From NCBI RefSeq assembly GCF_003664185.1, contig NZ_RCCS01000007.1:186001-250000 (forward strand): 64,000 bases of DNA, read 5' to 3'. Origin of the DNA: Tenacibaculum discolor (GTDB lineage Bacteria; Bacteroidota; Bacteroidia; Flavobacteriales; Flavobacteriaceae). The position numbers and the translations under genes were made by a program. Under the pieces are notes generated by a model. The model did not search any database. It was given only the letters and a program-made list of their open reading frames with translations, and had not been told where the DNA came from. Shown in pieces: positions 2,510-13,566 of the stretch; position 1 is the first letter of the stretch, and every line of letters begins with the position of its first letter.

Positions 2510-3877
2510 ATGAAGAAAATTATTGGAACTTTAGGAATTGCGATTTTAGGAGGCGCAATAGCACTTGCAGGATATAAAACATTGATAGAAGAACCGCAAG
2601 TGATTGTAGAAAAATCGGTAGAACCAACAATGCAAACTGTAAAGGCAAGTTACATGCCAACAGTAATAAACTCAACATCAACACCAACCGACTTTACAGA
2701 AGCAGCTGATAAAACAGTACATGCGGTGGTGCATGTTAAAAACACCTCAATAAGAACACAACAAAACCCGTTAGCAGAATTATTTTATGGTAGAGGAAGT
2801 GGAACGAGAAAGTACCAACAAGTAGGTACAGGAAGCGGCGTAATTATTTCTCCTGACGGGTATATTGTAACCAACAATCATGTAATTGAAGGAGCAAGCG
2901 ATATTGAAATTACGTTAAATAATCAGAAAAAGTTAAAGGCAACTTTAATTGGAGCAGATAAAAGTAACGATATAGCTTTATTGAAAGTAGAAGCTGATTT
3001 TGAATTGCCTAATTTACCTTTTGGAAACTCTGATAATATTAAAGTAGGAGAATGGGTCTTAGCGGTAGGGAATCCTTATAATTTAACATCTACTGTTACT
3101 GCAGGTATTGTAAGTGCAAAAGGACGTGATTTGGATGGAAACACCAATATAGACTCGTTTATTCAGACAGATGCAGCTGTAAATCCAGGGAATAGTGGAG
3201 GTGCGTTGGTAAACACACGAGGTGAGTTAATAGGAATTAATACAGCTATTTCATCAAGAACTGGTTCTTTTATAGGATATTCGTTTGCAGTGCCGTCAAA
3301 CATAGCTAAAAAAGTAGTAGATGATTTGTTAGAGTTTGGGACAGTACAAGAAGCTTTAATCGGTATAAATTATGATAATACGGAAAATGGAGTAGAGGTA
3401 ACTGCATTAACAGAGAATGGTGGAGCGAAAAAAGCAGGAATAAAAGAAGGAGATATTATTAGTAAAATTAATAATGTTAAAATTTCTAAGTTTTCTGATT
3501 TGAAAGGGCAATTAACGGCTAGGAGACCAGGTGATAAGGTTGTTGTAACAGTTTTGAGGGATGGAGATGAGTTAGAAAAACTAGTGGTTTTAAGTAAGAA
3601 AAATTTTGTTGCTGTCAGAAGTTTAGGGCTTGTCATTAAAGATTTGTCAAAAAATGATTTAAAGAAGAATAACCTAAAATCGGGAGCAAAGATTATAGAA
3701 AATGTTAACCCTTTTTTAAAACGGTTAGGTGTTGATAAAGGGTTTATAATAACTAGAATAAATGAATTTGAAATTAATGATGCAAAAGATGCTAAAAGTA
3801 AACTTCTAGAAAATAGTTCTTTAATTTTAGAAGGAATAAACTCAAAAGGAGAAAAAGTTAGATACGGTTTAAAGTAA
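2510..3877 (+). CDS. Periplasmic serine protease, HtrA/DegP/DegQ family
   Basis: Envelope quality-control protease and chaperone of 455 residues. It has an N-terminal signal anchor (residues about 4-21), a trypsin-like domain with the triad H124 (TNNHVIEG), D154 (KSNDIALLKV) and S229 (NPGNSGGAL), a first PDZ domain at about 265-350 and a degenerate second PDZ-like domain to the end. An upstream in-frame ATG at 2468 would add 14 residues ahead of the signal peptide and lies 5' of the predicted promoter, so I reject it. The last 20 codons are repeated in degenerate form at 4201-4263, beyond the next gene (see findings). Promoter element at 2480-2487; no hairpin terminator directly follows the stop. 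Confidence 0.93.
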   Translation: MKKIIGTLGIAILGGAIALAGYKTLIEEPQVIVEKSVEPTMQTVKASYMPTVINSTSTPTDFTEAADKTVHAVVHVKNTSIRTQQNPLAELFYGRGSGTRKYQQVGTGSGVIISPDGYIVTNNHVIEGASDIEITLNNQKKLKATLIGADKSNDIALLKVEADFELPNLPFGNSDNIKVGEWVLAVGNPYNLTSTVTAGIVSAKGRDLDGNTNIDSFIQTDAAVNPGNSGGALVNTRGELIGINTAISSRTGSFIGYSFAVPSNIAKKVVDDLLEFGTVQEALIGINYDNTENGVEVTALTENGGAKKAGIKEGDIISKINNVKISKFSDLKGQLTARRPGDKVVVTVLRDGDELEKLVVLSKKNFVAVRSLGLVIKDLSKNDLKKNNLKSGAKIIENVNPFLKRLGVDKGFIITRINEFEINDAKDAKSKLLENSSLILEGINSKGEKVRYGLK

Positions 3878-3926
3878 AATATTTTACTTATTATTGTGAC
3901 TAGTATTAATATAAAATTTAAATATT

Positions 3927-4154
3927 ATGAAATTTTTAAAAAATTCAAATGTAAAAGTATTATCAAACCTAGAACAAAAAGAAATAAATGGAGGAGGAGA
4001 TGGTTGTAGGCAAGTATCTTCATTGAGTGGAATGGGTTGTACGACAGTGTCCTATGATTGCTATAGTGATAATGGATGGAAATATAGAAGTTATACTGAA
4101 GGTTCATGTGGTGGTGGACGTATGGAGGTTGTAAGTGATTCATATTATGTGTGA
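3927..4154 (+). CDS. Small double-glycine-leader Cys-rich peptide (bacteriocin/RiPP-like precursor)
   Basis: 75-residue peptide. The N-terminus MKFLKNSNVKVLSNLEQKEI followed by NGGG resembles the double-glycine leader (LxxLEQKEINGG type) of Bacteroidota bacteriocin-like and RiPP precursors that are cut and exported by C39-peptidase ABC transporters. The mature part starts about residue 24-25 and contains four cysteines (C27, C38, C45, C61), a DNGWKY stretch and a C-terminal RMEVVSDS. It is Ser/Gly/Tyr rich and has no membrane segment. No peptidase, transporter or modifying enzyme adjoins it. It sits between htrA and a duplicated htrA 3' end, and its own hairpin terminator follows at 4181-4210. 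Function unknown. A second peptide of the same design is at 13390-13566. Confidence 0.72.
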   Translation: MKFLKNSNVKVLSNLEQKEINGGGDGCRQVSSLSGMGCTTVSYDCYSDNGWKYRSYTEGSCGGGRMEVVSDSYYV

Positions 4155-4180: not shown

Positions 4181-4210
4181 AGAACTAGGTTTAAAAACCT
4201 AGTTCTTTAA
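4181..4210 (+). terminator. Rho-independent terminator after the peptide gene
   Basis: A perfect 12-bp stem (AGAACTAGGTTT at 4181-4192, its complement at 4195-4206, loop AA) is followed by TTTAATTTT. The right arm overlaps the first six bases of the duplicated htrA tail, so the hairpin spans the junction. Confidence 0.8.
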
Positions 4211-4263
4211 TTTTAAAAGAAATAAAATTAAAAGGGAAGAATGTTAGGTATGGTCTAAAATAA
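4201..4263 (+). pseudogene. Degenerate duplicate of the htrA 3' end (20 codons plus stop)
   Basis: These 63 bases align without gaps to the last 63 bases of htrA (3815-3877): 51 of 63 identical, the first 15 identical without a break. In the same frame they encode SSLILKEIKLKGKNVRYGLK and a stop, against SSLILEGINSKGEKVRYGLK in htrA, 14 of 20 residues. The frame upstream is closed by stops, so it cannot be expressed as protein. The stop TAA (4261-4263) is the first base triplet of the strong hairpin that follows. I infer that this is the former end of htrA (or of a homologue), left behind when the segment with the present tail and the peptide gene was gained. Confidence 0.8.
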
Positions 4264-4308
4264 AAACATAAAAAAAGCTGCTTAAAAGCAGCTTTTTTTA
4301 TGTTTTTA
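4261..4308. terminator. Very strong bidirectional hairpin terminator
   Basis: Perfect 23-bp inverted repeat (4261-4283 with 4286-4308, loop AA) with GCTGCTT at the core and A/T tracts on both flanks. It begins on the stop codon of the htrA-tail relic, as expected if it was the original htrA terminator. It insulates the GAPDH gene from upstream reading. Confidence 0.9.
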
Positions 4309-4375: not shown

Positions 4376-5818
4376 ATGTCAACAATAACAAATTACGAAA
4401 AAGAAGTAGTAAATCAAGCGCAAGTTCGAAGAGCTACGGTTGAGTTTATTAATATCGTTAACGATTTATGGTACGATAAATCTATCGAGTTAGTATTATT
4501 TAGAAATCCATTAGTAGATAAAAGAGCTAGTGAGGTTTTAAACTTAATCGATTACGCTAAAGAGTTTGTAGCGAAGCCAATAACAATAGAAGATGCTTTA
4601 GAAATAGCTAAAGCAATTCAATCGATTGATTTACCACCATCAAAATTAGATATTGGTAAATTAGCTTACGAATTTCACTTACAAGACGATGCATCAGCAG
4701 ACAAGGTAGCTTTTGTAAAAGAGCAATTAAAAGATGCAACTGAAGCAGAAAACATTCAACCAAAAGATGTAGTATTATACGGTTTTGGACGTATTGGTCG
4801 TTTACTAGCTCGTGAGTTGAGTAGTAAGATGGGTAAAGGTTCTCAATTAAGATTAAGAGCAGTAGTTACTCGTGGTAAAATAGATCAAACAGTATTAGAA
4901 AAAAGAGCTTCTTTATTAAGTGTAGACTCTGTTCACGGAGATTTCTTGGGAACAGTTCAAGTAGATGCTGATAATAATGCATTAATCATTAACGGTACAA
5001 CTGTTCACATGATTTCTGCAGCACAACCTGAAGATATTGACTATACGCAATATGGAATTAACGATGCGTTAATTATTGATAACACAGGAGCTTTTAGAGA
5101 TGAAGAAGCATTAAGCCGTCACTTAAAAGCAAAAGGAGCAAGTAAAGTATTATTAACAGCTCCAGGAGCAGGTGTTCCTAACATTGTACACGGAGTAAAT
5201 CATGAAGAAAATAATCCTGATAATATAGATATTTTCTCAGCAGCTTCATGTACAACTAATGCTATTACACCAGTATTAAGTGTGTTAGAAGATAACTTCG
5301 GAATTAAAAAAGGACACTTAGAAACAATTCATGCATATACAAACGATCAAAATTTAGTTGATAATATGCATAAGAAATACCGCAGAGGTAGAGCAGCTGC
5401 TTTAAATATGGTAATTACCGAAACAGGAGCAGGTAAAGCAGTAGCAAAAGCATTGCCAGCATTAGCAGGTAAGTTAACTTCAAGTGCTATTCGTGTACCA
5501 GTACCTAACGGATCATTAGCTATCTTAAACTTACAATTAAAAACTCCGGCAACAGTTGAATCTGTTAACGCTATTATGAAGCAATATGCGTTAGAAGGAG
5601 ATTTAGTAGAGCAAATTCAATACTCATTAAGTAATGAATTAGTGTCTTCTGATATTGTAGGAACAACAGCTCCTTCTATTTTTGATAGTAAAGCAACTAT
5701 TGCAGATGGAGATACTATTGTAATCTACGTATGGTATGATAACGAGTATGGTTACTCACACCAAGTAATGCGTTTAGCAAAGCATATTGCTAAAGTACGT
5801 CGTTATACTTATTATTAA
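4376..5818 (+). CDS. gap: Glyceraldehyde-3-phosphate dehydrogenase, long form
   Basis: Phosphorylating GAPDH converting glyceraldehyde-3-phosphate to 1,3-bisphosphoglycerate with NAD(P). The catalytic domains are normal: nucleotide-binding GFGRIGR at 136-142, catalytic C292 in SAASCTTNAITP and H319 in LETIHAYTND. What differs is an N-terminal extension of about 130 residues before the Rossmann fold, giving 480 residues against about 335 for the standard enzyme. This long form is known from Bacteroidota and some other bacteria; the extension's function is not evident from sequence. Monocistronic: own promoter (4335-4342) and a strong terminator right after. Whether it is glycolytic or gluconeogenic cannot be told here. 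Confidence 0.93.
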   Translation: MSTITNYEKEVVNQAQVRRATVEFINIVNDLWYDKSIELVLFRNPLVDKRASEVLNLIDYAKEFVAKPITIEDALEIAKAIQSIDLPPSKLDIGKLAYEFHLQDDASADKVAFVKEQLKDATEAENIQPKDVVLYGFGRIGRLLARELSSKMGKGSQLRLRAVVTRGKIDQTVLEKRASLLSVDSVHGDFLGTVQVDADNNALIINGTTVHMISAAQPEDIDYTQYGINDALIIDNTGAFRDEEALSRHLKAKGASKVLLTAPGAGVPNIVHGVNHEENNPDNIDIFSAASCTTNAITPVLSVLEDNFGIKKGHLETIHAYTNDQNLVDNMHKKYRRGRAAALNMVITETGAGKAVAKALPALAGKLTSSAIRVPVPNGSLAILNLQLKTPATVESVNAIMKQYALEGDLVEQIQYSLSNELVSSDIVGTTAPSIFDSKATIADGDTIVIYVWYDNEYGYSHQVMRLAKHIAKVRRYTYY

Positions 5819-13389: not shown

Positions 13390-13566
13390 TTAGTTTGGGT
13401 TGTCTTCACAAACTACTTCCATAACCCAACCCCAACCGTCATGAACCATTCTTTCATAACAACATACAGGTTCGTCACAGGCTTCTTTAAGATAATCTAA
13501 ACCACCATGCACGGCTTTTTGCTCATTACTGTTTAAAATTTTCCCTAAACTTTTTAAATTTTTCAT
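13390..13566 (-). CDS. Second small double-glycine-leader Cys-rich peptide
   Basis: 58-residue peptide read from ATG at 13566 to TAA at 13390. The leader MKNLKSLGKILNSNEQKAVH plus GG (residues 21-22) fits the double-glycine leader type. The mature part has four cysteines (C30, C35, C36, C53), an HDGWGW stretch and the motif MEVVCED near the end. It shares leader layout, four cysteines, a D-x-GW element and MEVV with the peptide at 3927-4154, so I treat them as one family. Flanked by its own terminator and more than 340 gene-free bases upstream. No exporter or modification gene is near; function unknown, with a secreted bacteriocin-like or signalling role the plausible guess. Confidence 0.72.
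   Translation of the reverse strand: MKNLKSLGKILNSNEQKAVHGGLDYLKEACDEPVCCYERMVHDGWGWVMEVVCEDNPN

What the first reader, a model, noticed from the sequence alone, without database searches (positions are those of the whole stretch)
3927..4154. Peptide with double-glycine leader and four cysteines, without a visible exporter
MKFLKNSNVKVLSNLEQKEI plus NGGG followed by a 51-residue Cys, Ser, Gly and Tyr rich mature part is the design of a secreted double-glycine peptide. The window shows no C39 ABC transporter, HlyD protein or RiPP enzyme, so it must borrow a machine encoded elsewhere, or be a lone effector or signal.
Basis: partly seen in the sequence, partly recalled or inferred. Interest (0 to 1): 0.62.

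Follow-up and report, generated by a model that had tools for sequence, protein, structure and literature searches.

The report
Orphan secreted disulfide peptide, exporter elsewhere
The small gene encodes a secreted-type peptide with a cut-off leader and two probable disulfide bonds, one of about 40 such peptides scattered over this marine bacterium's genome that probably share one export and disulfide-forming machine encoded far away; the kind is known, but the size and scattering of the set and its fused oxidase look unusual.

Summary
Window 3927-4154 encodes a 75-aa peptide: 23-residue leader ending in GG, then a 52-residue core with four Cys. The genome (Tenacibaculum group) encodes about 40 peptides with the same kind of leader. 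Eighteen lie beside a C39 exporter, an HlyD-type adaptor and a C39-like/VKOR/thioredoxin fusion on another contig (C7). The rest, including the query and a second one in the window (13390-13566, minus), are scattered. All 40 cores have an even Cys number; across species 122 of 125 non-redundant cores do. Genomes with at least three such leaders carry a C39 domain in 46 of 46 cases and the fusion in 44 of 46 (5 of 121 others). A homologue in another species conserves the leader (65%) better than the core (31%), with all four Cys. So 'borrows a machine encoded elsewhere' is well supported. The query sits in a 386-bp insertion between htrA and gapdh with a 66-nt duplicate of the htrA end as a scar; it is absent there in nearly all relatives. 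Most likely it is an exported, GG-cleaved, disulfide-bonded peptide working like a bacteroidetocin; its target is unknown. Cleavage, export, disulfides and activity are inferred, not shown.

The parts
3927..4154 (+). GG-leader peptide gene, 75 aa
   Evidence: leave-out leader HMM
3927..3995 (+). leader, residues 1-23, ending ..LEQKEINGG
   Evidence: same length to GG as 194 of 209 relatives; L(-12), E(-8), I(-4), G(-2), G(-1) fit C39 recognition as described in PMC6363468
3996..4151 (+). core, 52 residues, Cys 27/38/45/61; predicted four-stranded beta fold
   Evidence: Cys conserved in the G141 homologue; single-sequence AlphaFold2 pLDDT about 83-89 over most of the core
4181..4206 (+). inverted repeat after the peptide gene (12-nt perfect arms), probable terminator
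   Evidence: the scan lists the stem on the minus strand only
3814..3879 (+). 3' end of htrA, first (coding) copy of a 66-nt direct repeat
4200..4265 (+). vestigial second copy of the htrA 3' end, 82% identical, scar of the insertion
   Evidence: colinear with the empty site of G156 from here on
2510..3877 (+). htrA/DegQ-like protease gene directly upstream (start at 2510 more likely than the listed 2468)
   Evidence: gene pair htrA-gapdh in most relatives
4376..5818 (+). gapdh-like gene downstream; marks the other side of the insertion site
13390..13566 (-). second GG-leader peptide of the window, 58 aa, four Cys: MKNLKSLGKILNSNEQKAVHGG|LDYLKEACDEPVCCYERMVHDGWGWVMEVVCEDNPN

Best explanation
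The gene makes a precursor whose 23-residue leader docks into the C39 peptidase domain of a peptidase-containing ABC exporter encoded on another contig (C7). The exporter cuts after Gly23 and moves the 52-residue core across the envelope with the HlyD-type adaptor. A membrane oxidase encoded beside the exporter (degenerate C39-like domain fused to VKOR and thioredoxin) joins the four Cys into two disulfides. The product is a small, acidic, beta-rich secreted peptide. Shown by sequence: the leader, the family, the genome's exporter, the oxidase, the even-Cys rule and the co-occurrence. Inferred: cleavage, export by that machine, disulfides. For activity, my leading guess is a bacteriocin-like peptide for competition (about 45%); signalling or action on eukaryotic hosts or neighbours is open.
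For: Leader real and better conserved than the core. The genome holds C39-ABC, HlyD-type adaptor and C39-like/VKOR/Trx fusion together with 18 sister peptides. Forty leader peptides in the genome, all with 2, 4, 6 or 8 Cys; 122/125 non-redundant cores even, p 8e-33, against 41 even/34 odd in other ORFs. Genomes with at least 3 leaders: 46/46 have a C39 domain and 44/46 have the fusion, versus 5/121, Fisher 3.9e-32. The predicted helix 14-20 and the L(-12), E(-8), I(-4) positions match the leader helix seen in a C39 co-crystal (PMC6363468). Precedent: bacteroidetocins are GG-cleaved, four-Cys peptides made with a thiol oxidoreductase and a C39-type exporter (PMC6671954).
Against: No expression, cleavage or mass data. 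The first half of the query's leader (residues 3-9) departs from the C7 type, and its own leave-out score is lower than that of typical members. Three genomes (G020, G039, G156) hold one or two leader hits without a detected C39 domain, so orphans can outlive the machine. Position -7 is Gln, not the usual Leu, though this is true of nearly the whole family. For toxin activity: cores average net charge -2.4, unlike the cationic bacteroidetocins.
Confidence: 0.75

Rival explanations
1. It is a class I lanthipeptide precursor, modified by the LanB/LanC pair of the same genome: Ser/Thr dehydrated, Cys joined as thioethers.
For: LanC at C7:234027 and LanB at C7:235273; the query core has 12 Ser/Thr and 4 Cys.
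Against: The LanBC locus has its own precursor with a different leader (MLKKKLSLNKEKIASLNDFEMNQIRGG); the query leader lacks the LSLNKEKIASL stretch. The family's even-Cys rule and the 27 of 40 cores with fewer Ser+Thr than Cys point to disulfides.
Confidence: 0.06
2. It is exported and cut by the second C39 transporter, on contig C10, which serves a radical-SAM peptide cluster.
For: C10 has an intact C39-ABC gene and no GG-leader peptide of this family close by, so its full range is unknown.
Against: Its own candidate precursor has a different leader ending ..VVGAGQ; peptide number across species tracks the fusion that sits beside the C7-type exporter.
Confidence: 0.1
3. It is a decaying or silent orphan: a cassette dropped in by recombination, no longer made or exported.
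For: Insertion scar with a broken htrA copy; rare at this site (2 of about 70 genomes); orphans without an exporter exist in other genomes.
Against: Frame, leader motif and all four Cys are intact, and a 47%-identical homologue in a distant species keeps them; a terminator-like repeat follows.
Confidence: 0.12
4. It works with the neighbouring HtrA protease, for example as a ligand or substrate of its PDZ domains.
For: Both genomes with the homologue carry it about 50 bp after htrA on the same strand; the C-terminus ends in a hydrophobic residue (V or I).
Against: htrA is nearly universal in the genus and almost always without a peptide; the shared place is explained by one insertion or transfer; C-terminal residues are not conserved.
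Confidence: 0.05

Closest known systems
Bacteroidetocins (class IIf bacteriocins of Bacteroidales, PMC6671954)
   Same: GG leader, four Cys, a C39-type ABC exporter and a thiol oxidoreductase, no obvious immunity gene
   Different: Their leader is 15-16 residues (here 23), peptides are cationic (here mostly acidic), and their gene clusters include a five-TM protein; here about 40 peptides, many away from the exporter, and the oxidase is a C39-like/VKOR/Trx fusion. Core similarity was not tested.
NF047798 leader_Chryseo, 'bacteriocin-like protein' (NCBIfam)
   Same: A GG leader of Flavobacteriia; one sister peptide matches it weakly (E 0.24, below cut-off)
   Different: The query does not match it at all.
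Class II microcins and class II bacteriocins exported by C39 peptidase-ABC transporters
   Same: GG leader with L(-12) and a small hydrophobic residue at -4, C39 exporter with HlyD adaptor
   Different: Usually one or few peptides beside exporter and immunity gene (general knowledge); here a large dispersed set without visible immunity genes.
Class I lanthipeptides of Bacteroidota
   Same: GG-ending leader, Cys and Ser/Thr in the core, LanBC present in the genome
   Different: The leader stretch of the LanBC-linked precursor is absent from the query; even-Cys pattern suggests disulfides.

Membership tests
GG-leader peptides exported by C39 PCATs | N-terminal leader ending in GG/GA/GS with hydrophobic L(-12) and V/I/L(-4) | tested here: met
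   sequence; leave-out HMM E 2.1e-4; motif from PMC6363468
GG-leader peptides exported by C39 PCATs | C39 peptidase-ABC exporter in the genome | tested here: met
   exporter has DCGPTC and downstream His/Asp in the C39 domain (read from the sequence)
GG-leader peptides exported by C39 PCATs | cleavage after GG and export by that transporter | not testable with these tools
   needs mass spectrometry and deletion
Tenacibaculum-group even-Cys leader family (this report) | 23-residue leader, even number of Cys in the core | tested here: met
Bacteroidetocins (class IIf) | leader of 15-16 residues | tested here: not met
   leader is 23 residues; definition from PMC6671954
Bacteroidetocins (class IIf) | peptide gene clustered with C39-ABC, TM protein and oxidoreductase genes | tested here: not met
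   query flanked by htrA and gapdh
Bacteroidetocins (class IIf) | antibacterial activity against Bacteroidetes | not testable with these tools
   no assay
NF047798 leader_Chryseo | score above curated cut-off | tested here: not met
   0 NCBIfam families for the query
Class I lanthipeptide precursors | leader stretch like that of the LanBC-linked precursor | tested here: not met
   by reading
Class I lanthipeptide precursors | dehydration and thioether rings | not testable with these tools
   needs mass spectrometry

The most novel reading that the evidence does not exclude
The C39-like/VKOR/thioredoxin fusion is a leader-guided disulfide oxidase: its degenerate C39 domain (no DCGPTC motif) holds GG leaders, as the active C39 of the exporter does, so that one exporter-oxidase pair folds and secretes a genome-wide library of about 40 unrelated disulfide peptides that can sit anywhere in the chromosome, the query being one that was inserted behind htrA.
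Probability: 0.35. Interest if true: 0.72.

Novelty: new variant of a known kind. Interest (0 to 1): 0.5.

Why it matters
Standard genome mining looks for peptides next to their exporter. Here more than half of a genome's set lies elsewhere, so such peptides are easily missed; the even-Cys rule and the link to one fused oxidase give a simple way to find them. If the oxidase really reads the leader, this would be a compact, general system to make many disulfide-rich peptides in a bacterium, with unknown roles in competition or in association with marine animals.

Tried and rejected
Pfam and NCBIfam: no family for the query. Phage and plasmid records: no match. Genome-contig scan with the single peptide: no relative. 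PDB by sequence: only chance-level hits. Foldseek and VIA-align 2 against PDB: no match with E <= 0.001; best Z 5.0, which is within the range common for unrelated models. HtrA linkage as a conserved operon: rejected, only two genomes of about 70. Flanking direct repeats at other scattered peptides as a general insertion signature: not seen; repeats found in some loci do not resemble a duplicated gene end around the peptide. Literature: no paper found in the held library on this peptide family or on the fusion in this role.

Full report
What is there. The reported ORF exists exactly as given: 75 residues, MKFLKNSNVKVLSNLEQKEINGG followed by a 52-residue core with Cys at 27, 38, 45 and 61. It lies 49 bp after the stop of an htrA/DegQ-like gene and before a gapdh-like gene, on the same strand. 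Neither Pfam nor NCBIfam names it.

Is the leader more than chance? A 23-residue profile built from non-redundant leaders of relatives, with the query and its only clear homologue left out, finds the query at E 2.1e-4 among 1,523 six-frame segments of the window, and the query beats 20,000 shuffles of its own start. The same search shows a second leader peptide in the window, 13390-13566 on the minus strand, between dapA-like and ferritin-like genes.

The family. The window belongs to a genome of the Tenacibaculum group: the fused oxidase described below is 96% identical in T. larymnensis LAR25, the closest named record. A genus-wide search gives many weak matches to the query, mostly confined to residues 10-31, i.e. 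leader and cut site. From the fetched loci 209 leader peptides were collected; 194 have the GG end at exactly residue 23, as the query does. The pattern used to collect them required GG/GS/GA, so the GG itself is not independent evidence, but the distance from the start and the Cys counts are. In the own genome 46 leader matches were found, of which 40 were read as intact peptides: 18 around the C7 exporter and 22 elsewhere, including the two of this window.

The machine. PF03412 finds three C39 domains in the genome. At C7:142-152 kb a C39-ABC exporter, an HlyD-type adaptor and a 532-residue protein lie among the 18 peptides. The 532-residue protein combines a C39-like domain, VKOR (1.9e-11) and Thioredoxin_4 (5.1e-9); its C39-like part shows no DCGPTC motif, so it is probably not a protease (my reading of the sequence). 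The third C39 domain, on C10, belongs to a radical-SAM peptide cluster. Across 167 genomes of the genus, those with at least three leader matches have a C39 domain in 46 of 46 cases and the fusion in 44 of 46, against 5 of 121 for the rest (Fisher 3.9e-32). Shared ancestry inflates such a p-value, but the near one-to-one pattern stands. G130 and G150, the two exceptions, are drafts.

Disulfides. All 40 cores of the genome have 2, 4, 6 or 8 Cys. Over species, 122 of 125 non-redundant cores are even, while other ORFs of the same DNA with two or more Cys split 41 even to 34 odd. With an oxidase beside the exporter, paired Cys is the natural reading. In the G141 homologue the four Cys keep their places (27, 38, 45, 60). 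A single-sequence AlphaFold2 model has a loose leader with a helix at 14-20 and a four-stranded core with pLDDT about 83-89 over most of its length. No known fold stands out, which says little for so small a model.

How it probably works. C39 domains recognise a short leader helix with hydrophobic residues at -12, -7 and -4 and, in ComA substrates, Glu at -8, and cut after the double Gly (PMC6363468). The query has L(-12), E(-8), I(-4), GG; position -7 is Gln, as in 98% of the family. Bacteroidetocins give an experimental precedent in the phylum: GG-cleaved, four-Cys peptides, a thiol oxidoreductase and a C39-type exporter, and no immunity gene, the producers being sensitive themselves (PMC6671954). 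So the lack of immunity genes here does not speak against a toxin. The mostly acidic cores (mean charge -2.4) do differ from the cationic bacteroidetocins. I rate bacteriocin-like action at about 45%, with signalling and action on eukaryotes as open options.

How it got there. In G156, whose htrA C-terminus is closest (85%), htrA is followed after 111 bp by gapdh. In the window the site holds 386 extra bp: the peptide gene, an inverted repeat, and then a vestigial second copy of the last 66 nt of htrA, 82% identical to the first and colinear with the G156 site from there on. The repeat's right arm and tail overlap the start of the vestige (TAGTTCTTTAATTTTA), which suggests joining at a microhomology (inference). 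Of about 70 relatives inspected, only G141 has a peptide here, a 47%-identical one 50 bp after its htrA; its spacer resembles that of the window, so the two probably share one origin. G561 (T. larymnensis) lacks a full-length homologue. Transfer by recombination through the flanking genes is likely but not proven; many losses would be the alternative.

Rivals. A LanB/LanC pair exists, but it has its own precursor with another leader, and the family pattern favours disulfides. The C10 exporter cannot be excluded. Silent or decaying status is possible, since three genomes keep one or two leader hits without a C39 domain, one of them G156. A tie to HtrA is unlikely given how rarely the two are together.

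Verdict. As a gene it is a new member of a known kind. As a system, the large dispersed set with one fused oxidase is a variant that I found no description of in the held literature; the domain fusion itself may be noted in databases (from memory, not checked).

Noticed in passing
window 13390-13566 (-): A second GG-leader, four-Cys peptide in the same window, between dapA-like and ferritin-like genes.
   Followed up: partly
L005 5744-10937 (G000:C10): A likely RiPP cluster: 61-aa precursor with WSRSSWSRSS near its end, radical-SAM protein, a protein with an HEAIH (HExxH) motif, and a C39-ABC exporter. It may make a cyclophane-type peptide.
   Followed up: no
L205 1696-6250 (G000:C7:233.7-238.3 kb): Class I lanthipeptide locus: precursor ending its leader in IRGG, LanC, LanB and a further 292-aa protein, with no C39 exporter seen in the stretch read; it may share the exporter of the peptide family.
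   Followed up: partly
window 3814-3879 and 4200-4265: 66-nt direct repeat of the htrA 3' end flanking the peptide gene, the second copy decayed: scar of the insertion.
   Followed up: yes
L004 5118-10253: Some sister cores give weak Pfam matches to animal Cys-rich families (EB module, Squash inhibitor, Prokineticin), all below cut-off; possibly only shared Cys spacing.
   Followed up: no
G156, G039, G020: Genomes with one or two leader peptides but no detected C39 domain or fusion: possible relics after loss of the machine.
   Followed up: no
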